Made by a program: the position numbers and the translations under genes. A stretch of DNA of 64,000 nucleotides from Phlebopus portentosus (taxonomy: Eukaryota > Basidiomycota > Agaricomycetes > Boletales > Boletinellaceae): contig JAYXKI010000011.1 of NCBI GenBank assembly GCA_037892935.1, positions 1,302,001-1,366,000 of the forward strand, read 5' to 3'. Each line of letters starts with the position of its first letter. Within the stretch, counting starts at the first letter, position 1. Positions 15,239-47,538 of the stretch are shown piece by piece. The notes beneath the pieces were generated by a model. The model was given only the letters and a program-made list of their open reading frames with translations. It searched no databases and was not told the origin of the DNA.

Positions 15239-15362
15239 TCTCCTTCTGACGAAGTAAAAAAATGATTAAAAAAAATGCTGGGTAGTGTAGGGGAGGTTTT
15301 TAGGCGAAGTTGAGCGGGGGTTGTGATGTAACTGGGTGGTATGTCTGTGACTTGCTCCTGGA

Positions 15363-15621
15363 TTAGTCTTCGGTTGTGAGATCGATCATCGGCGGATCGT
15401 GGATTGGTGCGGCGGTGTGCGGTGGAGGGTTGGCTCTGTCCGCCGCATCTTGTTGAGGTACGTTGTTGAGGTATGGGTGACGTTCAATGGATTCCCGAAG
15501 CTCGGCGAGGTGCTCTTCGATGTCCTGGGCGGCTGCGATTGCTGAGAGCGAATACTGTTGTGCTTGGAGTATAATGGCGATGACGTTGGCGGCGCAGTCG
15601 CGTATATCATCGTCGCCGCGC
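15363..15621 (-). pseudogene. SIM-like ORF of E1, C-terminal fragment
   Basis: Encodes the last 86 or so residues of the protein described at 17467-18414, ending PPMIDLTTED. E2 inserted at the GCGC at 15618-15621; the N-terminal fragment is at 30256-30948. I see no other lesion, so the E1 gene was open when E2 arrived. Confidence 0.8.
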
Positions 15622-17342
15622 TGTAGGCTATCAGACTCTCCTAGACAGGGACAAAGGCGGCGGCGGCGGCGTTCGACCACAGGGAGGCGATGTCAAAGGT
15701 GTCGAGAGGAAAAAGGGGAGGTCCTACCAGATCTACAGACTACCTACAGGCTTTCAAAAGCGACACTCAGCTCAGATGTACAAGGATCTGGCCGTTAGGG
15801 CAGATCCGCCGCGCCTTCGAATAACTCGCCGCGGCGATCCGGGCCTCGGCGACTGTATAGGGATCGCCGAGTCCGACTGAACCGGCGAAGAAGGGGTCGC
15901 AGCGGCGGACTGGGTGCGGGGCCGGCGGAGGTTCGCACCAGTGCAATTCTGCCTGGTAGTCGGGGAGATGACGTCGGAACGACACAGAGAGGGTGCGGGA
16001 GAGAGAGAGTCGACACCACTTAAAAGGGTAGTAGTGTCGGCGGTGGAACGACGCGGAGGCGGCGGAGGCGGCGAGAAGTGGGAGACTGGACTCAGTCGAA
16101 AAGGGGCGCCGGCGCCGACGGAAGGGGTGAACACAAGAAGAGTGACAGCTGCGTCGAGGCGTCGACGAAGTATAACAGATGCCTAGAAGAGTGACGGCTG
16201 CGTCGAGGCGTTGAGGAAGAATCACAAATGTTCAGGGCCCGAGCGGCGGCGGAGGCTGAAGAGAGAGAGAGACGGCGATGCAGATATGAGTGGGACGTCC
16301 CCGGAGCGATTACTAGACGAGTGACAGCTGCGCAGAGGGGAAACGACCAGGGCGGCGAATGAGCTCGGCGGCTTCTATCCTGTGAGATCCGGGGCCACGC
16401 CGTCAGGACGGGATCGGCGAGGGCACGTGACCGGGAGTTCGCCCGATCCGGCTGTCTGATTCTTTGTATATACTGGTTTCTTGAGGAAGGCTTCTTTACT
16501 TGTGGTTGGTCTCTGGTAGCTGCGTTCTAGAGTGTATATCTGCTGTTTTTTAGGATAGATACATGCTCTCTATATATACTATGAGTCCTTGATAAGAAAT
16601 ATCACTTAAAGCGGCGGGCGGCGAGGCGTGACAGGCGCGCCGCGCGGCGGGGGCCGCCGCCGAGATGCGCCGCCAAGCCACCAAGACCTAGGGGCGCCCC
16701 AATCGGAACGGCGGAGTGCTGGTACGTCGTGTCGAATGTCGGGGCCGTTCGGATCGGTCAGGGCGCGCTCTATATAGATCTGAAACGCCAAGGGGTCGAA
16801 TAAAACTAAAAAGGGGAATATACGGACGGCCGCCGGGCGCGCTACCACGCTCGGCGTACAATGTGGGATGATAAGAATATGAAACAATCAACAAAATGGA
16901 CCTGAGATTGGCTATCGTTCACCCAGCCGGCGCGGCGGCGGGCATACACCTCCGCGATGGCGCGATATACATCCGCCGCAGCGTATCCGGCCGCCGTGCG
17001 AGCACTTCCGAAGCCCGGAGTCACCGGATTCGGCGGGGAACCGTTCTTGAGAGAGGCTGGAGAAGGGGAACTAGGATTTGGTCGAAGGGAGGACAAGGTG
17101 ATCATAAGATAGGAGTGGAGGCGTCGCCGCCGGTTCGTATGGTCGGCGGCGGCGGCGGCGTGGATGCTGTTCCTAGGCCGCCGAAGGTCCGGCGGCCGCT
17201 GAGCAGGCTGTATTATGGGTAACGGCGGCGAAGGCTGGTTTGCTGACAATAGTACGCGGGGTGTCCTGGGTATGGCATAGGGGAGTACCGCCCTTACAGG
17301 CCTGTGCCGCTGGACCGGTACAGGTTAGTGCGGCGCACTACA
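15622..17342 (-). repeat. 3' LTR of E2 (1721 bp)
   Basis: Pairs with 28541-30255 (1715 bp); the difference comes from a few 1-3 bp indels (for example near 15889, 16255, 16640 and 17035). On the sense strand it is preceded by the purine-rich AGAAGGAGAT (plus 17343-17352), the likely polypurine tract. Confidence 0.92.
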
Positions 17343-17466
17343 TCTCCTTCTGACGAAGTAAAAAAATGATTAAAAAAAATGCTGGGTAGTGTAGGGGAGG
17401 TATTTAGGCGAAGTTGAGCGGGGGTTGTGATGTAACTGGGTGGTATGTCTGTGACTTGCTCCTGGA

Positions 17467-18414: not shown

Positions 18415-18565
18415 GTTGTAAGGAGCGCCGATGGTATTCGTAATCTGTAGGGTAGATGTTTTGGGGGCGGTGAGTAGTTCGCCGACCGCTTTATATATTT
18501 TCGGCGAGTGTTTTCCGGGTTGGCCGGAGGGTATGACGGCTTTTGGCGAGGTGAAGTTGCCAGTA

Positions 18566-19201
18566 TTATAGTGTAGAGGCCAATATAGGCGAAAGCCGAA
18601 GTAGTGTTCTAATGGAAGGGGGCCTAGGCGAAGGTGTTTCGTGTAGGCGGATCGTCGGCGGGACGAGTAAGTGGGATGGGAGGCTAGCGGCGAGGCTGGT
18701 TCGCCGGTAGTTCGGGTATGGTGGCCTGTAGCGGCGTGGGGCGAAGCGAACTTCGAATGGGAGGGGGCCTGGGCGAAGGAGTTTCGTACAGGCCGGTCGT
18801 CGGCGGGACGAGTGAGTGGGATGGGAGGCTCGCGGCGAGGCTGGTTCGCCGGTAGTTCGGGTATGGTGGCCTGTAGCGGCGTGGGGCGAAGCGAACTTCG
18901 AATGGGAGGGGGCCTGGGCGAAGGAGTTTCGTACAGGCCGGTCGTCGGCGGGACGAGTGAGTGGGATGGGAGGCTCGCGGCGGGGCTGGTTCACCGGTAG
19001 TTCGGGTATGGTGGCCTGTAGCGGCGTGGGGCGAAGCGATCTTCGAATAGAAGGGGGCCTGGGCGAAGGAATTTCGTATAGGCGGGTCGTCGGCGGGACG
19101 GGCTTCGATTTAGAAGGGAGTTCGGAAGTAAAGTTTAAATGGTTAATCATAGAAGGTGTCGTCATATCATGATCTTGATCTGGTACCAGATATGGATACA
19201 A
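18566..19201 (-). CDS. Proline-rich ORF across a tandem array (doubtful)
   Basis: A 211-codon minus-strand frame, rich in Pro, Arg, Ser and Thr, that runs across the 145-bp repeats. The E1 counterpart is 31100-31702. Because the period is 145 bp, the same repeat is read in three frames (residues such as SHSKFASPHAA, then LPFEVRFAPRR). This could be leader sequence rather than protein. I give it low confidence. Confidence 0.25.
   Translation of the reverse strand: MYPYLVPDQDHDMTTPSMINHLNFTSELPSKSKPVPPTTRLYEIPSPRPPSIRRSLRPTPLQATIPELPVNQPRREPPIPLTRPADDRPVRNSFAQAPSHSKFASPHAATGHHTRTTGEPASPRASHPTHSSRRRPACTKLLRPGPLPFEVRFAPRRYRPPYPNYRRTSLAASLPSHLLVPPTIRLHETPSPRPPSIRTLLRLSPILASTL
18676..19111 (-). 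repeat. 145-bp tandem array, three units in E2
   Basis: ATGGGAGGCT recurs at 18676, 18821 and 18966, period 145 bp. Each unit contains GGTAGTTCGGGTATGGTGGC and GCCTGGGCGAAGGA. E1 has two units at 31210 and about 31356. Copy number therefore differs between the two giant elements. Confidence 0.85.
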
Positions 19202-19352
19202 TGGCCTTGTAGTCAGGGGTAGTGGTACATCGGAAATACAATTTGGCGGGATTTTGGCGGTCCGGGAACCAGTCGGGGACGCCAGGTAGTTAACTAGGGC
19301 GGTGTAGGTCGTAGCATATAGGTTGAGGATTTGTTAATGGGTGTAGGTACGG

Positions 19353-19703
19353 CTAGGGTAGGGTGTGCGGCGATATTTGATGATCGGCGGGGGGGGGATC
19401 GGCGTAGAATGTTGTATCGGCCGGCTTGGCAGGGGTCTGGAAGGTTGGGGCTGTGTTGTGGCGGGGTTCGGCGGATTGTTCCGGCGAGTTTTGGAGGGGG
19501 GAGAGTCGCCGAGGGGTTTGTGGAATTTGAGTGGAGATTGCGGCGGAGCAGTGGGGAGGATTTGGTAATTGATTGGTAAAAAGGGGGCGGGGAGGTCGCG
19601 TGTATGGAGGGCTGAAATCGGAGTTTGAATTGGGTGCGGCGAGGATATAGACGACGGGGACTCGTGTCTGAGTTCCCCGTTTCTCTTTTTCTCTTTCCAC
19701 CAT
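19353..19703 (-). CDS. Sense ORF sharing its start palindrome with the antisense gene
   Basis: A 116-codon minus-strand frame starting MVEREKEKRG and ending ISPHTLP. Its ATG is the reverse of the plus-strand ATG inside the same CCATGG at 19700-19705. E1 has the same ORF (31743-32090, 115 codons); the only length difference I found is a 3-nt indel in a G tract, which keeps frame. Composition is proline- and serine-rich with no domain I recognise. It may simply be the antisense of the other gene's promoter. Confidence 0.3.
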   Translation of the reverse strand: MVEREKEKRGTQTRVPVVYILAAPNSNSDFSPPYTRPPRPLFTNQLPNPPHCSAAISTQIPQTPRRLSPLQNSPEQSAEPRHNTAPTFQTPAKPADTTFYADPPPADHQISPHTLP

Positions 19704-21463
19704 GGCGCCGACGATTCTCAGCGCAGCAGCAGCAGCGGCAGCGACAGCGACAGCAGCAGCAACAACAGCAGGGAGGGGTCGGAGGCTCCCTCCGACCAGA
19801 TGGAGGTGGACGCCGGGGCGGCGACGGGGGCTCCTGCCGCGGGCGGGATGTCGCGGGCCCCCAGCGGGCAAGAGGTCCCGCCGGAGTCGCAGGGGGAGAC
19901 GGAGGAGGAGGGTGGGGGGGGGGGGGGGGAGGGGGGGAGAACTGGACGCGGCCGTGTGGGCGGCCATTACGGCGGTGAGGGGGTGGATCGAGCGGGCCCG
20001 AAACGATGAGGGGCCCGCTGCCGATGAGCTCGATGGGCTCTTGGTAAATTTGCGTTCCCTTGATAATAACCGTGTGAGCTGACGATCTGGTTTACTTTTT
20101 CAGAAGGGGCTTGGGGAGCGCTTCCCCGCGCTATCCGACGACGCGAGGGCTGAAAAGCCCGAATATTATTGCGCGGGGAGGTGGTTGGTGAACCGGGCGA
20201 CGGTGGTGCGGATGGCCGCCGGGGAGGCTAAGGACGCCGCCGAGGCGTTGGACAAGGCCGCCCAGTCGGAGGTGAATCGCCTCCGACGCGTCGCGGAGAG
20301 GCTGGCCGAGCGCCGGGAGGAGGAGGCTCGTGAGGAGGCGAAGCGGAGCGCGGCGAAGGTGGCCGAGGAGGCGAAAGCCTCCTTCCTCAAGACGCTCGCC
20401 ACCCTGCGAGTTGGGGGCCCGGAGGTCGTCGAGGCCTTCTGTAGGTCCTCAGGGCGCGATGAGGCGGGGAACCTGGTAAGTCGTTGTCTTGAATCTTGTT
20501 TTTTACTGTCTCTGATAATATCTTCTTAGGTCGCGGCGCCTAAAACGAGCACCAAAGCGAAGGTGCAGGCGCGTCCCGCGGCCAGGCCGGCGACGGGAAA
20601 GACGATTACTCTTCCTGGGTCGTCGATCCCTGGTCTTGAGGTGGCGGGTTCGTCCAGCGAGACGCTCAAGGGGGAGAGTGGTCGAGTGACGCGAGGGGGA
20701 CGCTCGGGGACGGTCACGGGAAAGACCATTACTCTTGAGGTTGAGTCTGATGAGGGGTCAACGCGAGCGAAAAGGTCGAGTGGAAAGGAGGTATATGTCG
20801 ATGTGTGTTTTATGTCCTGGATCTTATTCTTCACTGACATGTTTCGTTTCTAGGTGCCTCCCCTTCCGAAGCGCGTACGTGAGCCGGTGGTCGAGCCGCC
20901 GGCGAAACGAGCAAGAGCGCCGGGAGCGGCGGCCTCGGGTGGGGGCAGGGCGAAAGAGGAGGCGACAGGAAGACGGGACGGGGCGGTGAGTGCTGTCTTG
21001 AATTTTGTTCTCGACACTCTCTGACTATAATATTCAGAGAGAGGAGGGGGGTTGGGAGTTCGAGAGGGTCGGGCGGCTCCCCAGGGGTCAGAGCCGCCGC
21101 CTCCTCGAGTTCGTGTCGCCGGGGTGCGAGCGGTGCATCGGGCGTGGGGAGGTGTGCACGAGGCGCCCGCCGGCGCTCCTGTGCCAGGCGTGCCGGGTAT
21201 CGCACGGTCGGTGCGATATCTTGGAGTCGGACGTGACCTTCCTGGTGCAGCAGGAGGTCCTCGCTCTCCGCCGGCAGCTGGAGGGGATGGAGTCGACGTT
21301 GGCGGGAGAGAGTGCGGGTGGGGGGTGGAGGAAAAGGCCCAGGGTGAACGCCGTGGATAGGCGGCGAGCCAAACGACGCAAACGGCGTCGGCTCGCGGTC
21401 TTCGGCGACCATGAAGCGCCCTTGGGCCGAAAAAAAATATTAAAAAAAATAGGAAAAATATAA
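19702..21463 (+). CDS. Antisense five-exon gene with Zn2Cys6-like cysteine array
   Basis: Model: join(19702..20043, 20104..20475, 20530..20790, 20854..20985, 21038..21463), about 510 residues. All four introns are 52-63 nt, begin GTAAAT/GTAAGT/GTATAT/GTGAGT, contain CTGAY branch points, end AG and are phase 0. Exon 2 encodes a long Ala/Glu/Arg-rich helix; exons 3-4 are basic and Ser/Gly-rich with PPAKRARAPG. Exon 5 encodes C-x2-C-x6-C-x8-C-x2-C-x6-C (CERCIGRGEVC then CQACRVSHGRC), the spacing of Gal4-type zinc clusters, followed by a heptad-like helix (FLVQQEVLALRRQLEGM) and an RRRAKRRKRRR tail resembling a nuclear signal. It lies opposite to gag-pol, convergent with pol. Inferred role: nuclear DNA- or RNA-binding regulator; unproven. 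Residues about 8-80 of exon 1 read in a shifted frame relative to E1. Confidence 0.72.
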
Positions 21464-21800
21464 AAGTACAAAAATATTGTATTTTTCTTTTTCTTGTGTA
21501 CTATAGTGGCTTGTAATAACAAGCCGAATGTTTTTCTTGTGAGGATGGTTCTTTGTGAGATCAGGGAATGTAAGATTGAGATGGGCTGGAGTGAAATAGG
21601 GAGGATAGGCGCCCTAAAAATAGCGCCGGGGCCGAAAGAATGACTTGAGTAAGGTGAAAATGTGGGAGGGGGTGACTCGGCGTCTCGCCGCAGTCGTTTG
21701 GGTGATGATTGGAGAGAGTGAAGATAGCGGCGGGTCCGAATAGGTGACTTAGGGAATGTGTATATAAGGGAGAGGGTGATTATGAGGCTTCGGCGGATCT
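21464..21800. other. Convergent 3' spacer between antisense gene and pol
   Basis: AT-rich just after the antisense gene stop (poly-A runs at 21430-21470, TTGTATTTTTCTTTTTC). It contains the palindrome GGCTTGTAATAACAAGCC (about 21509-21526), a possible hairpin. It probably holds 3' ends of both transcripts. The E1 counterpart is 33800-34187. Confidence 0.5.
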
Positions 21801-24800
21801 TCATAAGTTGGATTCGGCGTCTAGGTCATCCGCCGCGGTCTCTTGTGCTAGGTTGTCGAGTTCCGGCGTGGATTTCTGAGTGAGGTCTTCGACTGAGTCG
21901 ATGATTCGAGTGCGTGCGTGGTAGGGGATAACTCTGAATGCTGCGTAACGAAGTGCTGAAATGGCGCCGTTTGCTTCGGCGAGAACGTAGGATCCTCCTT
22001 TGGTTCGCCGCACGACAATCATGGGCCCTAGGTACTTCAGCTTTGTCTTCCTGTTCAGCTCGTTTTCGATCTGGGAGTTCCGGACCAGCACAAGTGAGCC
22101 GGGGGCGAAATTGTAATCTTTAATTGTTGCGGCGTGGGTTTTCTCGAAGTCCTGTATGGATTTGAAACGCCCCTGGATGACGGATTCCTTGACTCGTTGG
22201 AGGTCCTCGGGACGTTTCTGGAGTGCCCTTGCTCTCGCCGCGATGAGTTGTGCGTCGGACATCTTGGAGGTGACCGCCGGCGAGATGTACGTCTGTTCGG
22301 CGAGGTCGAAGGGGAGTACTGGTTCGACGCCGTGGGCCATAAAGTATGGGCTATAGCCTGTGCGGCGTTGAATCGTGATTCGTTCGGCCCAAATGGCGTG
22401 GTATATATGCTGGGACCACTTGTCTGGGCTTGAGTCGGCGAGCTTCATTAGGGTTTCTCTAAGGTCCCGGTGTCGCCGCTCAATGATTCCGTTGGCTCTT
22501 GAGTTGTACGGCGAGATTCGAATGTGCTGGACATTGTATTTGGCGAGAAGGCGGGGTAGGTCCTTGGAGAATGAGGCGCCGTTGTCGGTTACGATCTCCT
22601 CGACTCGTCCCCATCTTGACAAGATATCTTCAAAAACGAAGCGTGCTATCGAGGCGGCGTTATCTTTGCGCAGCGTTCGGAATTCGGGGTATCCGGTGAG
22701 GGAGTCTCGGGCCTGAATGATATACTTGAATCCGCCGGAGGGCGGCATTAACATGATGTCTATATGCACCCTGGAGAATAGCGGCGCGGGCGTCGGGCTT
22801 TGCGGCGTGGTATATATTTTCGTAAACTGCCTCGTTTGGCATTGGTGGCAGGTTCTGATATACCATTTGATGTCCTGATGCATTCCTGGCCACCAGAATC
22901 GGTCTTGAATCGTTGTTCTGACAGAGAAGAAGCCTTTGTGGCCGAGTTCGTCGTGGGCAGTTCTGATAATGGAAATTCGGCGTTCCGGCGGAATAACGAG
23001 TGCGGCGTGACCTTTGTCGTTCTTTCTGTAGAGTTCGCCGTGCTGTAGGAAGAAACGAGTGGCTCGGCGTACGAACTGTTTGAATTGGGCGTCTGAAAAA
23101 TCGGCGGGGCGGGATGGGGCGGCGAGAAATTTCTTGATACAATCGAGGTCTTTGAATCCTTTTTGTGAGGCTTTGTGATCGGGGAGTTGTACGGGTTCGC
23201 TGTTTGGGGTATAGGCCGTGTCGGAAAGGTCTTGGTTTAGGAAGGAGTATTGATGGTCGATCCATTCTTCGAAGCCTTCGTCTCGCGGCGGATCGGTTTG
23301 TGCGGCGCCGCGGCGTGATAGGCCGTCTGGGCCGAGGTGTTTGGGCGCCGGCGTATGAATGATCGTGAAATTGAAAAGTAAGATGCCGGCGATCCATCTA
23401 TTGATAGTGGCGTTGGGTTGGAGGTCTGGGTTGTTAATCATGCCTTTAATATAGCTGGCGTCGACTTCGACGAAAAAGTGATCGATGCCGACAAGGTATA
23501 TGCGCGCCTCATATAGAGCTCTGAAGAGGCCGAAGAGTTCTAGCTTCGCCTGGGAGTAGTTTCGTTCTCTGTTGTTCCAAGTTCCGGACATGAAACGGGA
23601 TGGGACCCTTTCGCCGTTTTCGCCGAGCTGTAACAAGATGGCGCCGTAGCCATGAACGGAGGAGTCTACACAGAAATGAACAGGTTGTCCTGACTCGTAG
23701 TCAATAGAACGAATGGCGCCGGAGGATGCTACGGCGTGTTTTAGTAGATCCATAGATCGGCGGGCGTCTTCGTCGAATAGGAAGGGCTGGTCTTTGCAGA
23801 GTAGTTTGTTGAGACCGGCGGATAGTCTGGCGTAGTTCTTCACGAAGTGTCTAAGGACGCCGGCCGTACCTAAGAATGCCCGAACATTGTGGACATCCCG
23901 CGGCGGAGGCCAATCCATTATCGCCTTGACCCTGGATGCGTCTGGGACTCGGCCGGCGTAATTACAGGTGTGTCCTACAATGACTGCTTCTGGTGCGGCG
24001 ATGATGAGTTTCTTACCCGAGACAGTGGCGCCGACTACTTTGAGGCGTTGGAGGACGCGGTTGACGTCGTTGAGATGTTCCCAGATGAAGCGGCGGATGT
24101 TCGGGTTCCCCGGAATGGTTTCGTAGTTTCCGGCGGCGAGCTCGTATCGGGATTTAGGCCCTTTTACAGGAATATCGTCGATGTATGGGATACAGACGTG
24201 GGGTATTTCATCTTTGAGTACGAAGGTGACGTCGGCGTGCATAATTTGTTGCGAGTTGGTGTATCCCATAGGAATCGACGTGAGGCGAAACGCGCCGAGA
24301 GGTGTTTGGAATGTTGTGAGGTCGCGGGATCGTACGTCGAGCTTTCTCTGGTCGAAGGCGACGAATAGATCGAGTGTGGTGTAGCAGGCATGGCCGCCGA
24401 AGGTCTCGGCGATGTGTTCTGTGGGGTAAGGGACGGAGGGGTCGCGTATGGAGACTTTGTTGAGTGGCTGGAGGTCGTGTACAAGTCGAAGGGATTTTCC
24501 ATCCTTTTTAACGACGCAGAACCATCGGGAGCGGTAAGAGGAATTGGACGGCTCGTAGACGCCGGAGTTAATTTTGTCTTTGATTATGCGAACCACTTCG
24601 TTGAAGATCCCCGGCGGAATAGGGATGTTTTTCATTACCCACGGCGTATGGTCGACAGTAGGAATTAGAACCGGCGCGAAGTATTGATAGTCGAGGGAGC
24701 CCTTTTCTGTTTCGTCCCAAGCTAGGCCGTCTTCATGTTGTAGAAGGGTCCAGTAGGCGAGGTTCTTTTCTTCCTCACTGAGGAAGCCAGTTGGGTCGAT

Positions 24801-25286
24801 GTCTAGGGCGTCGAAGCGCTCTTGTGTAAAGCGGCGTCCTGGAATGAACTCCGGCGGATCGATAGGGAGCTTCGGTAGATCTGTGAGCGGCTGCGGGTGT
24901 GATTTGCGTATGATGCGGTAGTCCTCTGGAAGGGTCGCCGATATAGGTTTGGTTCGTTGGGCGACCTTTTTGTACTTGTAGGCGTGCCCGGCCGGTTGAG
25001 CGGCCGTGGTATTAAGAGTGCTGTTGGAGCGGGGTATTCGGTTGCGTACGGGGAGTGATTCATCATCGAAAATAGAGTTAATGAAGAAGGCTGGATGTTT
25101 TTGGGCTTTGTTCTGGGCTGTGAAACCCTTTTCGGCGGATCGATCAGAAAATGAGGTGGAGATATCTATGGTGCGGGGACTGAAGGCGATATTTACAGTC
25201 GCCGGGCCGTGATGGAGGACATATGCGTCGGGTATGGTTGGGGGTATACGCCGCATATGTTCCGGCGGACGCCGCTGGGACGTCAT
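21801..25286 (-). CDS. pol: Pol of E2: reverse transcriptase, RNase H, integrase
   Basis: An intact 1161-residue ORF. RT spans about residues 215-420, with the catalytic YIDD at 368-371 in IPYIDDIPVKGP (Ty3/gypsy RTs more often have YLDD/YVDD). RNase H follows, with FCVDSS (Asp 541) and a later DASY motif. Integrase has an H-x-H...C-x2-C zinc domain (HDELGHKG...CHQC), then the D,D,E core at Asp 843, Asp 901 and Glu 936, and a C-terminal GPY/F-like stretch (YLGPMIVVRRTKGGSYVL). I see no chromodomain. There is no protease here: it is in the gag ORF. The start ATG overlaps the gag stop in ATGA (25283-25286), pointing to reinitiation or a frame change for expression. Confidence 0.93.
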   Translation of the reverse strand: MTSQRRPPEHMRRIPPTIPDAYVLHHGPATVNIAFSPRTIDISTSFSDRSAEKGFTAQNKAQKHPAFFINSIFDDESLPVRNRIPRSNSTLNTTAAQPAGHAYKYKKVAQRTKPISATLPEDYRIIRKSHPQPLTDLPKLPIDPPEFIPGRRFTQERFDALDIDPTGFLSEEEKNLAYWTLLQHEDGLAWDETEKGSLDYQYFAPVLIPTVDHTPWVMKNIPIPPGIFNEVVRIIKDKINSGVYEPSNSSYRSRWFCVVKKDGKSLRLVHDLQPLNKVSIRDPSVPYPTEHIAETFGGHACYTTLDLFVAFDQRKLDVRSRDLTTFQTPLGAFRLTSIPMGYTNSQQIMHADVTFVLKDEIPHVCIPYIDDIPVKGPKSRYELAAGNYETIPGNPNIRRFIWEHLNDVNRVLQRLKVVGATVSGKKLIIAAPEAVIVGHTCNYAGRVPDASRVKAIMDWPPPRDVHNVRAFLGTAGVLRHFVKNYARLSAGLNKLLCKDQPFLFDEDARRSMDLLKHAVASSGAIRSIDYESGQPVHFCVDSSVHGYGAILLQLGENGERVPSRFMSGTWNNRERNYSQAKLELFGLFRALYEARIYLVGIDHFFVEVDASYIKGMINNPDLQPNATINRWIAGILLFNFTIIHTPAPKHLGPDGLSRRGAAQTDPPRDEGFEEWIDHQYSFLNQDLSDTAYTPNSEPVQLPDHKASQKGFKDLDCIKKFLAAPSRPADFSDAQFKQFVRRATRFFLQHGELYRKNDKGHAALVIPPERRISIIRTAHDELGHKGFFSVRTTIQDRFWWPGMHQDIKWYIRTCHQCQTRQFTKIYTTPQSPTPAPLFSRVHIDIMLMPPSGGFKYIIQARDSLTGYPEFRTLRKDNAASIARFVFEDILSRWGRVEEIVTDNGASFSKDLPRLLAKYNVQHIRISPYNSRANGIIERRHRDLRETLMKLADSSPDKWSQHIYHAIWAERITIQRRTGYSPYFMAHGVEPVLPFDLAEQTYISPAVTSKMSDAQLIAARARALQKRPEDLQRVKESVIQGRFKSIQDFEKTHAATIKDYNFAPGSLVLVRNSQIENELNRKTKLKYLGPMIVVRRTKGGSYVLAEANGAISALRYAAFRVIPYHARTRIIDSVEDLTQKSTPELDNLAQETAADDLDAESNL

Positions 25287-27742
25287 TGTCTAGGGGGGCG
25301 CTGTTTTTCTGTCCCGGCGCCGCGCTGAATCGTCGGGATCGACATGGTTTCGTTCGTATCGGGATGAGTAAGGTATAGCATCTGTTCGCCGTCGGCCTCG
25401 TCTATGACCTGCGCCCTAGTGTGTACGAAAAACGGCCGGCCTAATAGTAACTGAAAGGGGGCCTTTTCGACGACCTGGACTTGGACAACAATAGAGAAGG
25501 CGCCTATGGTGAGTCTGACGCGAGGGATGAGTCCCGCCGAGCGTGAGGTTTGTCTGTCGGCGGTTTCTACTGTGATTGCTTGGCTCATTATCGTCGGGGA
25601 CCCGAGGTCCTTCCATACCTCTTTTGGCACGGCGATAAATGTCGACCCCGAGTCGAGCAAAGCTTTTACTTCGAATTTATCATCGAGCCAGACCTCGATT
25701 TCGCGGAGGGGAATGTTCGGCGGGGCGACGGAAGGATCTTCGTCGCCGAAGTTAACCGGCGAGGTGGGCCTCGGGATCGAGGCGTACATTGCCATCTCGT
25801 GATCAGGATTTTCCCTAATTAGTTCTCGGCGCCCCGTGACGAATTCTTTACACTTCTTTCTGATTTCGGGAGAGGCGGCGAGCAGGCTTCGGATCGGCAG
25901 GGTGACTTCCGAGTCCAGAATCTTGTCGAAAACGTTCGATACCGCGGCGTCATCGTATGCTGGTACGGTGGTTCGGTATTGTGGCTTCGGATCCGCCGCG
26001 TCGTCCCTGTGCGGCGCCGAGGGCGTCGGCGGCGGGGCCGGGCGTTGTCCGGGTGGTTTCCCCTTCTTGCTGTTATCTCCCCATTTCGGGTTGGGGTCTC
26101 GAGGCGGCTTTCTGGTGGGGATTTCGATTCCGTCGAAAACTTCTCTGGGGCCTGGCCGTCTTCCGGCGGCGGCGAAGGCATTCTGCGGTTGTTCGGTGGA
26201 TTCTTCTTGTTCAAAAAGGAGCGCGACTCCGTCGCAGGCATCGTCGTCTGGGGGGTCTTCTGGGGTGATAGCCTCGAAGTAGTTCGATTCCTGGATTCGC
26301 GGCGGCAGGCCGTTCGGCGGATTTGTATTGTAGGCTAAGGGAGGCGGTGCCCGGTTGAGGCCCTGGTACATAGATTCCTGTGATGGAGGGTGTGACTGAT
26401 ACATGGATTGTTGAGTCGGCGGTTGTCCCTGATATGTGGGATCCTGCCTCGGCGGAGCGATCCTTGGCGGCGTGTTGGATACGGGCTGAATGGGGAGCTG
26501 GACGCCAACTGGTGCGTAGTTTGGATTCTCTATGAAGAGCTTATTAATCCTGTCCAGTACTGACATCCCCGGTTCTCCCTGAGGAAGTCGGCCATTGGAG
26601 GGGTACAAGTACCCTTTGGCGTCGGCGAGCATGATTCCCCTCTGGATCAGGGAGATCTTGGTGGGACAGTCGCGGGTAGAGTGCGTTACACTGGCGCATA
26701 CGGCGCATTTTCCGTTAAATCTGGCTTGTCGGGGCTGCGGCGGGGCTCCTGCGGTTGGCGGCGGAGCGCGGCGGTTTGACTTCTCGGTGGCTTCACGGAG
26801 GGCGCGCATTTCCTGGATTAGGAGGGACACCCACGGTTCTTCTTGCTTGACCTGGGGTTGGTTGATGACTCCGTAGGCCAGAGCACCGGGCTGCGGCGGC
26901 GGCGTGTACGTCGTAACTTGTGTATAGGTGGGCATGGCCGCTGTCGCCGCATACATCAGTGGTTGGTCGGCGGTTGTGAGGCGACCGCCGGTTAGGATGC
27001 GTTCTAGTTCTCTTACAACTGTGTCGATGTCCCAGGGCACGCCGGTAGGGTGGTCGTGCTTGACAAACCGCAAATTAAGATCCAGCTCTCTGTTTAGCGT
27101 CGGGTGGAGGCCTTCTCTGAACATACGCTTCTGTTCGAACTCTGATAGCATGCCGGCGTCGATAAGATACGAGGAGACGGTGATAAAGTTCCTATGGTAT
27201 TCGCCGAGGGCGGCGGTGTTCAGCATAATTTGGTTGCGGCTTATGTTAATAAGGTTGTGGAGGTCGCCGAGTGTGTACTGGGTCGTAGCGTTTGGGTAGT
27301 ACTTTAGGATAGCGTCTTTGAATGCCATAAAGTCGTTTCCTCTCGTTTCGGGCCTTTTGCACCATAGCTGATCGTCTTTAGCGTCGGCGTAGCATCTTGC
27401 CCAAGCGATCATTTGTGCATCTGTTAGGCCGGCGCTTCGTCCAAATAGCCGGACTCTGTTAAAGAAGATGGGGATTTCCACGGGGTCGCCGGAGGCGTTG
27501 AACTTCGGCGCGCGGCGGTCTCCCGGGTAGGGCATTGTAGCTCCTGGCACTGGTGGGTTGGGACCACTTAATGGATGGGTATCTGGGTCACTGAGGTCTG
27601 GGAGAGGGGGAAAGGCGCCCGCGGGGGTTGGTGCTGGTGCGGCATAGGCTGGTGCGGCGGGGGACGGCTGTTGGGGGGGCGGCGGGGTCGATCCTGAGGC
27701 TGCGGGGGGCGCGGCGGGAATGCCGGTATGGGTGCTGGTCAT
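25283..27742 (-). CDS. gag: Gag-protease of E2
   Basis: An 819-residue ORF: a proline/alanine-rich N-terminus, capsid-like region (about 80-260, with FFNRVRLFGRSAG and FEQKRMFREGL), glutamine-rich linker, a C-x2-C-x4-H-x4-C zinc knuckle starting at Cys 346, an acidic/proline-rich segment, and an aspartic protease at the C-terminus (LLDSGSTFIAVP with Asp 697; LLGRPFF about residue 770). Fusing protease to Gag rather than to RT is unusual for Ty3/gypsy. ATG 27742 is used because the frame upstream is broken in E2 (G-tract deletion near 28015), whereas in E1 the frame continues 285 codons upstream. Confidence 0.9.
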   Translation of the reverse strand: MTSTHTGIPAAPPAASGSTPPPPQQPSPAAPAYAAPAPTPAGAFPPLPDLSDPDTHPLSGPNPPVPGATMPYPGDRRAPKFNASGDPVEIPIFFNRVRLFGRSAGLTDAQMIAWARCYADAKDDQLWCKRPETRGNDFMAFKDAILKYYPNATTQYTLGDLHNLINISRNQIMLNTAALGEYHRNFITVSSYLIDAGMLSEFEQKRMFREGLHPTLNRELDLNLRFVKHDHPTGVPWDIDTVVRELERILTGGRLTTADQPLMYAATAAMPTYTQVTTYTPPPQPGALAYGVINQPQVKQEEPWVSLLIQEMRALREATEKSNRRAPPPTAGAPPQPRQARFNGKCAVCASVTHSTRDCPTKISLIQRGIMLADAKGYLYPSNGRLPQGEPGMSVLDRINKLFIENPNYAPVGVQLPIQPVSNTPPRIAPPRQDPTYQGQPPTQQSMYQSHPPSQESMYQGLNRAPPPLAYNTNPPNGLPPRIQESNYFEAITPEDPPDDDACDGVALLFEQEESTEQPQNAFAAAGRRPGPREVFDGIEIPTRKPPRDPNPKWGDNSKKGKPPGQRPAPPPTPSAPHRDDAADPKPQYRTTVPAYDDAAVSNVFDKILDSEVTLPIRSLLAASPEIRKKCKEFVTGRRELIRENPDHEMAMYASIPRPTSPVNFGDEDPSVAPPNIPLREIEVWLDDKFEVKALLDSGSTFIAVPKEVWKDLGSPTIMSQAITVETADRQTSRSAGLIPRVRLTIGAFSIVVQVQVVEKAPFQLLLGRPFFVHTRAQVIDEADGEQMLYLTHPDTNETMSIPTIQRGAGTEKQRPPRQ

Positions 27743-28599
27743 TGTTGGTATCGAGGCCGTCTTAGGAGGTGTACTGGGGGTGGGTGGTTGGGCGTTGTCA
27801 ATTGGGGAGAGCCGCGGCCTCTGAGCTGGTGTCAGCGGCGTAAGAGGGGGGGGTGGGGAGAGCCTCGCCGATCGCTCTTCTTCGACGGGGGATAGTGGAG
27901 AGTCGGGGGTGATTGCGTGGCCGTGTACGAGGGAGTCGGGGACGTAAAGGTCGTCGTCCTCCTGTTCTTCTGTGGCGGAGTATAACTGTAGGCCGGTGCG
28001 GCGGTGGAGATCTGGGGGTTGTCTATGTCGGAGAAGAGGTCGGTTTCGATGGGGCCGGTGGCTGGAGGTTCCTGGAGGGATATTGACAGGTCCTCGATGC
28101 CGCCGGGGACACGAACGTGAGTACTGGGGCGAATTTCGGATTCGCGGAGGTCTTTAGGAACGTGGATGAAACGAGGGGGAATTATAGGCGATATAGGGTG
28201 TGCGGCGGCGGTGCTTGCGCTTTCGCCAGGCGGTGGGTTGCGTGTAAAAGGAGTGATAGATGCTCTTCTGGGACGCCGGGTGGGTGGGTCGTCTGCGGCG
28301 ATGGAGGCGCGTCGACGGTTCGGCGCGGACGGAGATCTGGGTGCGGTGGGACGGGGTTCTTCTGTTCGGCCTCTTGTAAAGAGTGTGGAATAATGGTATG
28401 GTTGGCCGGCGGTTGTGGCTGAGGCTGTTTGACTGTTTTCCGCCCTTCTTTGCAGCCTTAGTGAGTATCGCGTGCCCTTGGAAGGGCCTGAGATCGGTTG
28501 GAACGACACCTTTTTACCTCCCTCGCGGTGGGCTCCAAAATGTAGGCTATCAGACTCTCCTAGACAGGGACAAAGGCGGCGGCGGCGGCGTTCGACCAC
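27743..28599 (-). pseudogene. N-terminal Gag extension of E2, frameshifted
   Basis: A 255-codon frame starting MVERRRRR inside the 5' LTR (28599) and crossing the LTR end and primer-binding site. It matches the first part of the 1104-codon E1 Gag. E2 has five G where E1 has six near 28013-28017, which throws the rest out of frame. If Gag starts at 27742 this lesion is harmless. Confidence 0.65.
28517..28540 (-). promoter_or_regulatory. Primer-binding site of E2
   Basis: On the minus strand the 5' LTR is followed by TTTTGGAGCCCACCGCGAGG. E1 (40900-40923) has TTTTGGAGCCCACGGCGAGG and the gag-only element has the same with one inserted A. Sharing across three elements with different LTRs supports its role as the tRNA-complementary site. 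Confidence 0.6.
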
Positions 28600-30255
28600 A
28601 GGGAGGCGATGTCAAAGGTGTCGAGAGGAAAAAGGGGAGGTCCTACCAGATCTACAGACTACCTACAGGCTTTCAAAAGCGACACTCAGCTCAGATGTAC
28701 AAGGATCTGGCCGTTAGGGCAGATCCGCCGCGCCTTCGAATAACTCGCCGCGGCGATCCGGGCCTCGGCGACTGTATAGGGATCGCCGAGTCCGACTGAA
28801 CCGGCGAAGGGGTCGCAGCGGCGGACTGGGTGCGGGGCCGGCGGAGGTTCGCACCAGTGCAATTCCGCCTGGTAGTCGGGGAGATGACGTCGGAACGACA
28901 CAGAGAGGGTGCGGGAGAGAGAGAGTCGACACCACTTAAAAGGGGAGTAGTGTCGGCGGTGGAACGACGCGGAGGCGGCGGAGGCGGCGAGAAGTGGGAG
29001 ACTGGACTCAGTCGAAAAGGGGCGCCGGCGCCGACGGAAGGGGTGAACACAAGAAGAGTGACAGCTGCGTCGAGGCGTCGACGAAGTATAACAGATGCCT
29101 AGAAGAGTGACGGCTGCGTCGAGGCGTTGAGGAAGAATCACAAATGTTCAGGGCCCGAGCGGCGGCGGAGGCTAGAGAGAGAGAGACGGCGATGCAGATA
29201 TGAGTGGGACGTCCCCGGAGCGATTACTAGACGAGTGACAGCTGCGCAGAGGGGAAACGACCAGGGCGGCGAATGAGCTCGGCGGCTTCTATCCTGTGAG
29301 ATCCGGGGCCACGCCGTCAGGACGGGATCGGCGAGGGCACGTGACCGGGAGTTCGCCCGATCCGGCTGTCTGATTCTTTGTATATACTGGTTTCTTGAGG
29401 AAGGCTTCTTTACTTGTGGTTGGTCTCTGGTAGCTGCGTTCTAGAGTGTATATCTGCTGTTTTTTAGGATAGATACATGCTCTCTATATATACTATGAGT
29501 CCTTGATAAGAAATATCACTTAAAGCGGCGGGCGGCGAGGCGTGACAGGCGCGCCGCGACGGCGGGGGCCGCCGCCGAGATGCGCCGCCAAGCCACCAAG
29601 ACCTAGGGGCGCCCCAATCGGAACGGCGGAGTGCTGGTACGTCGTGTCGAATGTCGGGGCCGTTCGGATCGGTCAGGGCGCGCTCTATATAGATCTGAAA
29701 CGCCAAGGGGTCGAATAAAACTAAAAAGGGGAATATACGGACGGCCGCCGGGCGCGCTACCGCGCTCGGCGTACAATGTGGGATGATAAGAATATGAAAC
29801 AATCAACGAAATGGACCTGAGATTGGCTATCGTTCACCCAGCCGGCGCGGCGGCGGGCATACACCTCCGCGATGGCGCGATATACATCCGCCGCAGCGTA
29901 TCCGGCCGCCGTGCGAGCACTTCCGAAGCCCGGAGTCACCGGATTCGGCGGAACCGTTCTTGAGAGAGGCTGGAGAAGGGGAACTAGGATTTGGTCGAAG
30001 GGAGGACAAGGTGATCATAAGATAGGAGTGGAGGCGTCGCCGCCGGTTCGTATGGACGGCGGCGGCGGCGGCGTGGATGCTGTTCCTAGGCCGCCGAAGG
30101 TCCGGCGGCCGCTGAGCAGGCTGTATTATGGGTAACGGCGGCGAAGGCTGGTTTGCTGACAATAGTACGCGGGGTGTCCTGGGTATGGCATAGGGGAGTA
30201 CCGCCCTTACAGGCCTGTGCCGCTGGACCGGTACAGGTTAGTGCGGCGCACTACA
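28541..30255 (-). repeat. 5' LTR of E2 (1715 bp)
   Basis: Pairs with 15622-17342. On the minus strand it opens TGTAGTGCGCC and ends GATAGCCTACA. The TATA box is at 29485-29492, leaving a transcribed LTR portion of about 0.9 kb, which contains a conserved but unproven 151-codon frame (28686-29141). Confidence 0.92.
29485..29492 (-). promoter_or_regulatory. TATA box in E2 5' LTR
   Basis: TATATATA, read on the minus strand as GTATATATAGAGAGC. The equivalents are 41992-41999 (E1 5' LTR), 16571-16578 and 14468-14475 (3' LTRs). It matches the core promoter of the gag-only element. Confidence 0.5.
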
Positions 30256-40600: not shown

Positions 40601-40982
40601 CGCTTTCGCCAGGCGGTGGGTTGTGTGTAAAAGGAGTGATAGATGCTCTTCTGGGACGCCGGGTGGGTGGGTCGTCTGCGGCGATGGACGCGCGTCGACG
40701 GTTCGGCGCGGACGGAGATCTGGGTGCGGTGGGACGGGGTTCTTCTGTTCGGCCTCTTGTAAAGAGTGTGGAATAATGGTATGGTTGGCCGGCGGTTGTG
40801 GCTGAGGCTGTTTGACTGTTTTCCGCCCTTCTTTGCAGCCTTAGTGAGTATCGCGTGCCCTTGGAAGGGCCTGAGATCGGTTGGAACGACACCTTTTTAC
40901 CTCCCTCGCCGTGGGCTCCAAAATGTAGACTATCAGACTCTCCTAGACAGGGACAAAGGCGGCGGCGGCGGTGTTCGACCAC
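37668..40982 (-). CDS. gag: Gag-protease of E1, open to inside the 5' LTR
   Basis: A continuous 1104-codon frame. It opens MVEHRRRRLCPCLGESDSL within the LTR (40982), crosses the LTR border at 40924 and the primer-binding site, then runs through a Ser/Pro/Arg-rich region of about 280 residues before MTSTHTGIP, where the shorter Gag would start (40126). After that it matches E2: capsid region, CAVCASVTHSTRDC zinc knuckle, protease LLDSGSTF and LLGRPFF. Which start is used is unknown; the TATA at 41992-41999 would include all of this frame in the transcript. Confidence 0.85.
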   Translation of the reverse strand: MVEHRRRRLCPCLGESDSLHFGAHGEGGKKVSFQPISGPSKGTRYSLRLQRRAENSQTASATTAGQPYHYSTLFTRGRTEEPRPTAPRSPSAPNRRRASIAADDPPTRRPRRASITPFTHNPPPGESASTAATRPISPIIPPRFIHVPKDLRESEIRPSTHVCVPGGIEDLSISLQEPPATGPIETDLFSDIDNPPDIHRRTGLQLYPAAEEQEDDDLYVPDSLVHGHAITPDSPLSPVEEERSARLSPPPLTPPTPAQRPRLSPIDNAQPPTPSTPPKMASIPTMTSTHTGIPAAPPAASGSTPPPPQQPSPAALAYAAPAPPPAGAFPPLPDLSDPDTHPLSGPNPPVPGATMPYLGDRRAPKFNASGDPAEIPIFFNRVRLFGRSAGLTDAQMIAWARCYADAKDDQLWCKRPETRGNDFMAFKDAILKYYPNATTQYTLGDLHNLINISRNQIMLNTAALGEYHRNFITVSSYLIDAGMLSEFEQKRMFREGLHPTLNRELDLNLRFVKHDHPTGVPWDIDTVVRELERILTGGRLTTADQPLMYAATAAMPTYTQVTTYMPPLQPGAPAYGVINQPQVKQEEPWVSLLIQEMRALREATEKSNRRAPPPTAGAPPQPRQARFNGKCAVCASVTHSTRDCPTKISLIQRGIMLADAKGYLYPSNGRLPQGEPGMSVLDRINKLFIENPNYAPVGVQLPIQPVSDTPPRIAPPRQDPTYQGQPPTQQSMYQSHPPSQESMYQGLNRAPPPLAYNTNPPNGLPPRIQESNYFEAITPEEPPDDDACDGVVLLFEQEESTEQPQNAFAAAGRRPGPREVFDGIEIPTRNPPRDPNPKWGDNSKKGRPPGQRPAPPLTPSAPHRDDAADPKPQYRTTVPAYDDAAVSNVFDKILDSEVTLPIRSLLAASPEIRKKCKEFVTGRRELIRENPDHEMAMYASIPRPTSPVNFGDEDPSVAPPNIPLREIEVWLDDKFEVKALLDSGSTFIAVPKEVWKDLGSPTIMSQAITVETADRQTSRSAGLIPRVRLTIGAFSIVVQVQVVEKAPFQLLLGRPFFVHTRAQVIDEADGEQTLYLTHPDTNETMSIPTIQRGTGTEKQRPPRQ
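40900..40923 (-). promoter_or_regulatory. Primer-binding site of E1
   Basis: TTTTGGAGCCCACGGCGAGG immediately after the 5' LTR on the minus strand. It differs by one base from E2 (see 28517-28540). Confidence 0.6.
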
Positions 40983-42762
40983 AGGGAGGCGATGTCAAAG
41001 GTGTCGAGAGGAAAAAGGGGAGGTCCTACCAGATCTACAGACTACCTACAGGCTTTCAGAAGCGACACTCAGCTTAGATGCACAAGGATCTGGCCGTTAG
41101 GCAGATCCGCCGCGCCTTCGAATAACTCGCCGCGGCGATACGGACCTCGACGGGTGTATAGGGATCGCCGAGTCTGACTGAACCGGCGAAGGGGTCGCAG
41201 CGGCGGACTGGGTGCGGCGCCGGCGGAGGTTCGCACCAGTGCAATTCCGCCTGGTAGTCGGGGAGATGACGTCGGAACGACACAGAGAAAGTGCGGGAGA
41301 GAGAGCGTCGACACCACTTGAAAAGGTAGTAGTGTCGGCGGTGGAACGACGCGGAGGCGGCGGAGGCGGCGAGAAGCGGGAGACTGGATTCAGTCGAAAA
41401 GGGGTGCCGGCGCCGACGGTAGCGGCGAACACAAGAAGAGTGACAGCTGCGTCGAGACGTCGAGGAAGTATGACAGATGCCTAAAAGAGTGATGGCTGCG
41501 TCGAGGCGTTGAGGAAGAATCACAAACGATCTGAACCGAGCGGCGGCGGCGAAAGACAAAAGGGGCCTCAGGCGCAGGGAGAAATCGAAGACCGCGGGAT
41601 TGATTACTAGAGGAGTGACGGCTGCGTCGGGATGTGGAGGAGGAATCCCAAATGCTCAGGACCGAGCGGCGGTGGAGACTAGAGAGAGAGGGACGGCGAT
41701 GCAGATATAAGTGGGAAGTCCTCGGAGCGATTACTAGACGAGTGACAGCTGCGCAGAAGGGAGATGACCAGGGCGGCGAATGAGCCCAGCGGCTTCTATC
41801 CTGTGAGATTGGGGCCGACGCCGTCAGGACGGGATCGGCGGGGGCACGTGACCGGGAGTTCGCCCGATCCGGCTGTCTGGTTCTCTGTATATACTGGTTT
41901 CTTGAAGGAGGCTTCTTTACTTGTGGTTGGTCTCTGGTAACTGCGTTCTAGAGTGTATATCTGCTGCTCTTTAGGATAGATACATGCTCTCTATATATAC
42001 TATGAGTCCTTGATAAGAAATATCACTTAAGGCGGCGGGCAGCGAGGCGTGACAGGCGCGCCGCGACGGCGGGGGCCGCCGCCGAGATGCGCCGCCAAGC
42101 CACCAAGACCTAGGGGCGTCCCAATCGGAACGGCGGAGTGCTGGTACATCGTGTCGAATGTCGGGGCCGTTCGGATCGGTCAGGGCGCGCTCTATATGGA
42201 TCTGAAACGCCAAGGGGTCGAATAAAACTAAAAGGGGGAATATACGGACAGCCGCCGGGCGCGCTACCGCGCTCGGCGTACAATGTGGGATGATAAGAAT
42301 ATGAAACAATCAATGAAATGGACCTGAGATTGGCTATCGTTCACCCAGCCGGCGCGGCGGCGGGCATACACCTCCGCGATGGCGCGATATACATCCGCCG
42401 CAGCGTGTCCGGCCGCCGTGCGAGCACTTCCGAAGCCCGGAGTCACCGGATTCGGCGGAACCGCTCTTGAGAGAGGCTGGAGAAGGGGAACTAGGATTTG
42501 GTCGACGGGGGGACAAGGTGATCATAAGATAGGAGTGGAGGCGTTGCCGCCGGTTCGTATGGTCGGCGGCGGCAGCGGCGTGGGTGCTGTTCCTAGGCCG
42601 CCGAAGGTCCGGCGGCCGCTGAGCAGGCTGTATTATGGGTAACGGCGGCGAAGGCTGGTTTGCTGACAATAGTACGCGGGGTGTCCTGGGTATGGCATAG
42701 GGGAGTACAGCCCTTACAGGCCTGTGCCGCTGGACCGGTACAGGTTAGTGCGGCGCACTACA
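40924..42762 (-). repeat. 5' LTR of E1 (1839 bp)
   Basis: Same length as 13400-15238. TATA at 41992-41999. It contains a conserved 161-codon minus-strand frame (41074-41559, also 13550-14035) with a cysteine/arginine-rich composition in the transcribed part; coding is unproven. Confidence 0.92.
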
Positions 42763-45411: not shown

Positions 45412-45419
45412 ACGTCGGA

Positions 45420-47141: not shown

Positions 47142-47538
47142 TGAAAGGATCCGCTCAAAAACTCGCATCAAGATCGACACGATCGGCAGATCAACAGGAT
47201 CAGCATTCCAAACGCGACTAGTAACAGTCCAGCAGTCACTAGAGCCAAACTACTGTTAATGCAACCAAGGCAACGGTCACGGGCATCAACGGCAATATAC
47301 GGGCGTCTAAGAAGCACGCCACAAGTACGTAACCCCGCGGACTACTTAACACCGCCGACCGGTAATTACCACCGCCGATTTACTACCGCCGACCGTCACC
47401 TTAACACCGCCGACCAAACTCTCGATCCGACCCGATCAAAAGAAGTCAAGAAACGATCAAAACTACTAGAAGCCCGAGAAGTCTAGAACACGACTACTAA
47501 AGCCTAACACCTAAAGTCTAAAGGCTAATCCGATCCCA

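What the first reader, a model, noticed from the sequence alone, without database searches (positions are those of the whole stretch)
19702..21463. Spliced antisense gene with a Zn2Cys6-like cluster inside a giant gypsy element
Five exons and four phase-0 introns can be placed on the strand opposite gag-pol, between integrase and 3' LTR. The E1 copy has the same exon-intron layout with identical intron lengths. Exon 5 has C-x2-C-x6-C-x8-C-x2-C-x6-C, the Gal4-type spacing, but at the C-terminal end and followed by a helix and a basic tail. Spliceosomal introns survive retrotransposition only if antisense to the genomic RNA. HTLV-1 HBZ is a known precedent for a spliced antisense regulator in a retroelement; this may be a fungal analogue by convergence. 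A regulator of the element's own LTRs or of host chromatin is my inference.
Basis: partly seen in the sequence, partly recalled or inferred. Interest (0 to 1): 0.88.

Follow-up and report, generated by a model that had tools for sequence, protein, structure and literature searches.

The report
Spliced antisense gene in fungal retrotransposons
A family of mushroom retrotransposons carries, backwards relative to its own genes, an intron-containing gene for a probable zinc-binding nuclear protein, and two related element families in the same genome carry similar genes, so this mobile DNA seems to have kept a private, possibly regulatory gene on its opposite strand.

Summary
The spliced antisense gene is real in anatomy and conservation; transcription is untested. 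In this genome (Sanghuangporus, closest S. sanghuang) a 14.6-kb gypsy element carries, 0.4 kb beyond pol on the opposite strand, a five-exon gene with four phase-0 introns. A strict intron scan of the 11.2-kb interior finds only those four on that strand, plus two alternative donors inside intron 3. GT-AG is intact in 104 of 104 introns of 26 copies. The gene, sometimes partial, lies at fixed distance from pol in 30 of 34 pol matches. S. weigelae has a 475-aa homologue (46% identity, all six cysteines) whose locus tag adjoins the pol gene's. New here: two related gypsy families also carry an antisense, apparently spliced ORF with a similar cysteine cluster beside pol (17 of 17 pol places examined). 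Within-family selection on the protein is weak to undetectable (omega 0.55 over 26 copies; 0.80, n.s., over 18 where pol gives 0.09). Pfam does not call Zn2Cys6. Best reading: a fast-evolving nuclear accessory protein, probably regulatory; function inferred.

The parts
19702..20043 (+). exon 1 (342 nt); Ser/acidic N-terminus in the family frame. In this copy about residues 8-78 are read out of the family frame (variable CAG-type and poly-G tracts)
   Evidence: homologue P0003 agrees with the family frame
20044..20103 (+). intron 1, 60 nt, phase 0, GTAAAT...CTGAC...CAG
20104..20475 (+). exon 2 (124 codons), long helix / coiled-coil-like segment
   Evidence: AF2 of the S. weigelae homologue gives helix 130-224, block-mean pLDDT up to 91
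20476..20529 (+). intron 2, 54 nt, phase 0, GTAAGT...CTGAT...TAG
20530..20790 (+). exon 3 (87 codons), linker with two TGKTITL repeats
20791..20853 (+). intron 3, 63 nt, phase 0; two further possible donors at 20803 and 20805
20854..20985 (+). exon 4 (44 codons) with a KR-rich nuclear-localisation-like motif (PAKRARAPG)
   Evidence: motif label is recalled, S. weigelae has ASKRVKASG
20986..21037 (+). intron 4, 52 nt, phase 0, GTGAGT...CTGAC...CAG
21038..21361 (+). exon 5 as shared by the family (stop near 21361): six-cysteine cluster, coiled-coil-like helix, EKAQGERRG end.
21125..21214 (+). C-x2-C-x6-C-x8-C-x2-C-x6-C cluster
   Evidence: all six Cys kept in P0003 and P0002
32089..33850 (+). 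second copy of the gene in element E1, same four introns (32430-32489, 32862-32915, 33177-33239, 33372-33423), cluster at 33511; frame broken in exon 1
   Evidence: (L023)
21801..25289 (-). pol of E2 (RT, RNase H, integrase), convergent with the antisense gene
25283..28153 (-). gag/protease ORF of E2 (DUF4100, aspartyl protease)
18607..19100 (.). 145-bp tandem repeats (3.4 copies) upstream of the antisense ATG; number varies between copies
15622..17342 (-). 3' LTR of E2
28541..30255 (-). LTR shared by E2 (5') and E1 (3')
40924..42762 (-). 5' LTR of E1, 1839 bp

Best explanation
The region is an antisense accessory gene of a Ty3/gypsy lineage in the mushroom Sanghuangporus. It sits tail-to-tail with pol, probably has its own promoter in the ~2.4 kb between the 3' LTR and its ATG, and is spliced by the host from a transcript opposite to the genomic RNA, which is why its introns are not lost on retrotransposition. 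It encodes a fast-evolving ~476-aa protein: acidic/Ser-rich N-terminus, long helix, linker, NLS-like motif, C-terminal six-cysteine cluster and coiled-coil-like helix. Most likely this is a dimeric nuclear zinc-cluster protein that regulates the element itself (LTR transcription, or its escape from host silencing). Shown: gene anatomy, intron integrity, presence beside pol in most copies, a homologue beside pol in a second species, and similar cysteine-cluster ORFs in two sister families. Inferred: transcription, zinc and DNA binding, nuclear entry, dimerisation, regulatory role.
For: The strict intron scan of the 11.2-kb interior returns the four introns (plus two alternative donors in intron 3) on the antisense strand, and one candidate on the sense strand. 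GT-AG is intact in 104 of 104 introns of 26 copies; 106 of 108 with a decayed 27th copy. The gene, in some copies only in part, lies 535-549 bp from the pol probe in 30 of 34 pol matches. S. weigelae ACEPAI_7296 (P0003, 46% over 94%, six Cys, same C-terminus) has the locus tag next to pol ACEPAI_7297 (P0031, 86%), with the same listed contig length. In two sister gypsy families one copy each was read and holds an antisense ORF with C-x2-C-x6-C-x7-C-x2-C-x6/7-C; 17 of 17 pol places examined have a match to that ORF 468-651 bp away on the other strand. The two sister proteins are homologous (E 2e-11), and the cluster aligns with that of this family (E 0.002 for a single comparison). The five best PDB profile matches are HAP1/CYP1 and PUT3 chains, none significant (E 0.11-0.47).
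Against: No RNA evidence was available. Within the family the protein is at most weakly constrained: over 26 copies omega is 0.79 for singletons, 1.02 for variants in two copies and 0.55 (P 0.037) for those in three or more; over the 18 copies with well-aligned pol it is 0.92, 0.50 (P 0.09) and 0.80 (P 0.46), where pol gives 0.52, 0.29 and 0.09. Only 4 of 20 translated copies stay open at family length in the family frame. The S. vaninii model (P0004) lacks the cluster as annotated, and P0001 reads exon 5 in another frame. Pfam calls no Zn2Cys6 domain, the first loop lacks the usual basic residues, and AF2 gave the cluster low confidence. CGG half-site pairs in the LTR were uninformative. For the sister families only one intron was found by the strict scan; the others were placed by eye.
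Confidence: 0.5

Rival explanations
1. The protein is real but serves another step of the element's life cycle: tethering or targeting of integration, nuclear import, or RNA/particle handling, with the cysteine cluster acting in protein or RNA contact rather than sequence-specific DNA binding.
For: First loop of the cluster is poor in basic residues (sequence); Pfam gives no Zn2Cys6 call above cut-off; NLS-like motif and long helix; fast-evolving protein (46% against 86% for pol) suits contact with host factors.
Against: Plant antisense ORFs are discussed as possible nuclear or DNA-binding regulators (PMC7264820, PMC11963269, passages read); no direct evidence either way.
Confidence: 0.25
2. 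The antisense transcript, not the protein, is what matters: it regulates the element by pairing with genomic RNA, and the ORF is incidental or decaying.
For: 15 of 20 translated copies stop early and one more reads in mixed frames; within-family selection on the protein is marginal over 26 copies and not detectable over 18.
Against: Full-length homologue at 46% identity with all six cysteines in S. weigelae, and cysteine-cluster ORFs in two sister families, one with 7 copies identical over 401 aa, are not expected for an incidental ORF.
Confidence: 0.13
3. A host gene was captured recently in antisense orientation and is a passenger.
For: Gene has ordinary host-like introns; capture is a discussed route for extra ORFs (PMC7264820, passages).
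Against: The tblastn matches of P0003 listed at E<=10 fall in copies of this family already found (best candidates only, checked by eye). The same position beside pol in a second species and similar genes in two sister families mean it is old, not a recent passenger.
Confidence: 0.06
4. The spliced gene is a chance reading of GC-rich sequence.
For: The first-reader model reads through segments outside the family frame, showing how permissive GC-rich DNA is.
Against: Intron scan, shuffles, intact splice sites, homologue and sister families.
Confidence: 0.02

Closest known systems
Plant Retand and Grande gypsy elements with antisense ORFs between pol and 3' LTR (aORF-3R; TRP28, GENE23)
   Same: Ty3/gypsy; long pol-3' LTR region; antisense gene; tandem repeats in that region in about half of Retand elements; present in most copies; nuclear or DNA-binding function proposed (PMC11963269, PMC7264820, passages read).
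   Different: Different protein (TRP28 or unrelated, against a six-cysteine cluster); the word 'intron' has no occurrence in either paper's main text; plants, not fungi. No homology tested.
brtn, antisense gene of Boty-like gypsy elements in Botrytis cinerea (Zhao et al. 2011, Virology)
   Same: Fungal gypsy element with an additional antisense gene (title seen as a citation in PMC7264820 and PMC8365987; the paper itself was not read).
   Different: Ascomycete; sequence, position and splicing of brtn could not be checked here.
HTLV-1 HBZ
   Same: Spliced gene on the antisense strand of an LTR retroelement encoding a regulator (PMC6237760, passages; PMC5797633, start of abstract in the listing) with nuclear localisation (passage in PMC11963269).
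   Different: bZIP protein; antisense promoter inside the 3' LTR (passage in PMC7264820); an animal retrovirus. No sequence comparison was made.
Fungal Zn2Cys6 transcription factors (Gal4, HAP1, PUT3, LEU3)
   Same: Six cysteines with Gal4-type spacing, then a coiled-coil-like helix; HAP1 and PUT3 are the best, though non-significant, PDB profile matches, LEU3 a weak one (E 4.6).
   Different: C-terminal position, first loop lacking the usual basic residues (recalled feature), below Pfam cut-off.
Antisense homing-endonuclease gene with a spliceosomal intron in a mobile group I intron of rDNA (PMC9548176, abstract and outline read)
   Same: Mobile element carrying an intron-containing gene on the strand opposite to the element RNA.
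   Different: Group I intron in a myxomycete, unrelated protein.

Membership tests
[quoted passage not shown]
   pol 21801-25289 (-), gene 19702-21361 (+), 3' LTR 15622-17342
Antisense additional ORF of Ty3/gypsy elements (aORF-3R type) | antisense to gag-pol | tested here: met
   also 17 of 17 pol places examined in two sister families
Antisense additional ORF of Ty3/gypsy elements (aORF-3R type) | present in most copies of the family | tested here: met
   30 of 34 pol matches have it, some in part, at 535-549 bp; 6 further short 75-76% matches were left out
Antisense additional ORF of Ty3/gypsy elements (aORF-3R type) | conserved in other species | tested here: met
   S. weigelae P0003/P0031 adjacent locus tags; orientation there not visible; S. 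vaninii model lacks the cluster as annotated
Antisense additional ORF of Ty3/gypsy elements (aORF-3R type) | transcribed from its own antisense promoter | not testable with these tools
   no RNA data held
Zn2Cys6 binuclear cluster (PF00172) | six cysteines with C-x2-C-x6-C-x5-12-C-x2-C-x6-8-C spacing (recalled definition) | tested here: met
Zn2Cys6 binuclear cluster (PF00172) | score above the Pfam gathering cut-off | tested here: not met
   11.7 bits against 21, E 0.28, for exon 5; not listed for P0003 or the sister proteins
Zn2Cys6 binuclear cluster (PF00172) | basic residues in the first loop that contact DNA (recalled) | tested here: not met
   loop reads IGRGEM / LPRGEL; the sister families are somewhat more basic, QKRGRD / ARTGRV
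Zn2Cys6 binuclear cluster (PF00172) | fold similarity to solved Zn2Cys6 domains | tested here: inconclusive
   profile matches HAP1 0.11, PUT3 0.46; AF2 block-mean pLDDT about 42-56 over the cluster, so no fold search was run
HBZ-like retroviral antisense regulator | spliced antisense mRNA | tested here: inconclusive
   splice signals and their conservation only; no RNA
HBZ-like retroviral antisense regulator | bZIP domain | tested here: not met
   no bZIP match in Pfam
Boty brtn | sequence homology to BRTN | not tested
   BRTN sequence not held

The most novel reading that the evidence does not exclude
An antisense, intron-bearing cysteine-cluster gene is an ancestral, maintained component of a whole lineage of agaricomycete gypsy elements (three families in this one genome have it, with some 90 near-complete copies). 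It encodes a trans-acting nuclear factor by which the element controls its own LTRs or evades host CpG methylation, a convergent counterpart of HBZ, and its introns can be kept only because the gene is antisense to the genomic RNA.
Probability: 0.33. Interest if true: 0.82.

Novelty: new variant of a known kind. Interest (0 to 1): 0.67.

Why it matters
Antisense extra genes in LTR retrotransposons are known in plants and from one Botrytis family, but their function is open. A mushroom element family whose antisense gene has four introns and a recognisable cysteine cluster, with sister families sharing such a cluster, makes the question testable: the introns give an unambiguous RNA signature of antisense transcription, and the cluster gives a domain to purify. 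It also illustrates a simple rule: a retroelement can keep spliceosomal introns if the gene lies antisense to its genomic RNA. If the protein counters silencing or controls the LTRs, it would be a self-encoded regulator in a fungal retrotransposon.

Tried and rejected
Chance reading of GC-rich DNA: rejected. Host paralogue or capture source in the genome: none found with P0003 (best candidates only). Pfam, PDB sequences and two AF2 jobs for the cluster: no significant call, low confidence, so no fold search was made. CGG half-site enrichment in LTR and upstream DNA as a test of autoregulation: in the LTR the highest excesses were direct repeats at spacings 0, 3, 6 and 12, which looks like GC-rich trinucleotide sequence rather than a site; uninformative. 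Relatives of the pol in viral contigs: none confirmed. First pol selection run included about 58 codons upstream of the ORF and two poorly aligned copies; repeated without them, which replaces it. Relaxed automatic searches for the family-2 intron and for the upstream family-3 intron returned nothing: the first was given a range starting inside the intron, the second demanded a branch motif that the intron lacks; both introns were placed by eye. Papers: ten full-text searches were made; those aimed at antisense or zinc-cluster genes in fungal LTR elements listed no such gene other than the citation of brtn; only listings and the named passages were seen, and subscription journals are mostly outside that library.

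Full report
WHAT THE WINDOW IS. The window lies in a 38.4-Mb, 23-contig genome. The antisense protein matches a S. sanghuang protein at 97% over 52% of the query, so the genome is Sanghuangporus sanghuang or very close (Agaricomycetes, Hymenochaetales). The window holds a tandem array of one gypsy family: LTR, remnant, LTR, element E2, LTR, element E1, LTR, with the coding strand minus. E2 spans about 15622-30255 (14.6 kb); the longest LTR is 1839 bp. Its gag/protease ORF carries DUF4100 and an aspartyl protease, and pol carries RT, RNase H and integrase.

THE GENE. Each intron has a donor of the type GT[AG][AT][AGT]T, a CTGAC/CTGAT motif whose A lies 14-22 nt from the intron end, and a YAG acceptor. 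Scanning the 11.2-kb interior of E2 for this combination returns on the plus strand these four introns plus two alternative donors inside intron 3, and on the minus strand one site. Dinucleotide shuffles of the gene reached four such acceptors in 0 of 500 cases. The cysteine pattern occurs in the window only in the two copies of the gene.

CORRECTION OF THE MODEL. Twenty copies with flanks and six more plus one decayed copy were fetched. Repeat tracts in exon 1 (CAG-type and poly-G) vary between copies. The family protein begins MAPTILSVSSSS..., is 472-478 aa in the 4 of 20 translated copies that stay open in that frame, and ends ...GGGVEEKAQGERRG; 15 copies stop earlier and E2 reads through in mixed frames. 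There is no basic tail in the family frame. The six copies were aligned and counted but not translated one by one.

CONSERVATION. GT-AG is intact in 104 of 104 introns of 26 copies, and in 106 of 108 when the decayed copy L055 is counted. Of 34 pol-probe matches, 30 have the antisense gene (in some only part of it) at 535-549 bp; one has none and three pair at larger distance. Six short 75-76% matches were left out. Six antisense matches, one of them 1.6 kb long, had no pol match, and three very short antisense-probe matches were not entered. In S. weigelae the homologue ACEPAI_7296 (P0003, 475 aa, 46% identity over 94%) has all six cysteines and the same C-terminus. The best pol match, ACEPAI_7297 (P0031, 86% over 89%), has the next locus tag and the same listed contig length; strand and introns there are not visible. 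The S. vaninii model (P0004) aligns upstream but lacks the cluster as annotated, and P0001 of S. sanghuang reads exon 5 in another frame. These two count against uniform conservation.

SELECTION. With CpG-aware expectations over 26 copies, variants in three or more copies give omega 0.55 (21 N, 20 S, P 0.037), those in two copies 1.02, and singletons 0.79. Over the 18 copies whose pol is well aligned (2 of 20 dropped, L025 and L028), the antisense gene gives 0.80 (8 N, 4 S, P 0.46), 0.50 (P 0.09) and 0.92, while pol gives 0.09, 0.29 and 0.52 (which replaces). In one search one antisense frame shows a similar ratio because it shares third positions. The case for a coding function rests on the interspecies homologue and the sister families. 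Introns vary less than exons (13 segregating sites against 19.5 expected at exon rates by base class).

SISTER FAMILIES. A pol search of the genome showed related families: one with 1180-aa and one with 1213-aa pol frames. I read the pol-3' region of one copy of each (L056, L057). Both hold, antisense to pol, an ORF with a similar cluster: PCDQCQKRGRDCVGLPQRTCAPCLKQAKGC and GCERCARTGRVCEGFPGQACDYCRTKARRRC. In family 3 the strict scan finds one antisense intron, 3794-3847 (54 nt, phase 0), and one site on the other strand; an upstream GTGCGC...TAG intron, also phase 0, was placed by eye and lacks a CTNAY motif. In family 2 the strict scan finds no intron; a 47-nt GTAGGT...CTAAT...CAG phase-0 intron was placed by eye. 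Of 17 pol places of these families entered (16 family 2, 1 family 3), 17 have a match to the antisense ORF 468-651 bp beyond pol on the other strand. The family-2 ORF has 50 matches running from query residue 18 or earlier to 389 or later, and the family-3 ORF has 21 matches over most of its length, 7 of them identical in protein including the query itself (counts from listings whose candidates are limited). The two sister proteins are homologous (31% over 129 aa, E 2e-11). The link to the window family rests on the cluster alone: BLASTP E 0.002 in a single comparison, hhalign E 0.0021 with probability 13%, the same position and strand, and related pol. Common descent of all three antisense genes is therefore likely but not proven.

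HOW IT MIGHT WORK. The protein has an acidic/Ser-rich N-terminus, a long helix, a linker, an NLS-like KR motif, the cysteine cluster and a coiled-coil-like helix. AF2 supports only the helices. Zn2Cys6 proteins were the best PDB profile matches but not significant, and Pfam does not call the domain. I take a dimeric nuclear accessory protein as most likely, acting on the element's own transcription or silencing. An indirect hint that silencing matters is the mutation pattern: 208 of 364 exon CpG positions vary between copies, against 58 of 676 other G/C positions, as expected of methylated DNA. These last steps are inference.

WHAT IS KNOWN. [quoted passage not shown] One fungal case, brtn in Boty, is cited there. 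The searches aimed at this question listed no intron-bearing or cysteine-cluster antisense gene in a fungal LTR element; this is not proof of absence. I therefore class it as a new variant of a known kind.

Noticed in passing
window 19702-21463 and copies L009-L028, L049-L054: CpG sites are hypermutable among copies (208 of 364 exon CpG positions vary, against 58 of 676 other G/C and 17 of 451 A/T), pointing to cytosine methylation of the element.
   Followed up: partly
window 20530-20790 (exon 3): The linker holds TGKTITLEVES, identical to part of the ubiquitin N-terminus (ubiquitin sequence recalled; polyubiquitins were weak hits), and a second TGKTITL. S. weigelae has TLTGKTITLVES and S. 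vaninii TLTGKAVILSEDESDEGE, which also resembles a SUMO-interacting motif (recalled).
   Followed up: no
G000:C3:2959521-2959769: A single weak match (33%, E 1e-4) to the family-2 antisense protein on a contig where one search listed no related pol; possibly a domesticated or host relative. The sequence could not be fetched.
   Followed up: no
window 18607-19100 and 31141-31492: 145-bp tandem repeats upstream of the antisense gene vary in number between copies (1 to 4 BLAST matches per copy in 20 copies); possible promoter or enhancer repeats.
   Followed up: partly
window 13400-17342 and 30256: An LTR-remnant-LTR unit stands next to E2, and E1 lacks about 380 bp next to its 3' LTR, signs of recombination in the tandem array.
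   Followed up: partly
G000, family-3 elements such as C6:229525-234653: Seven copies of the 401-aa antisense ORF (query included) are identical at protein level, suggesting recent activity of that family.
   Followed up: no
window 44734-47144 and 51668-54847: Other retroelements on the plus strand (zinc knuckle, RT; RT, RNase H, integrase). The cysteine cluster occurs in no frame of the window outside E1 and E2.
   Followed up: partly
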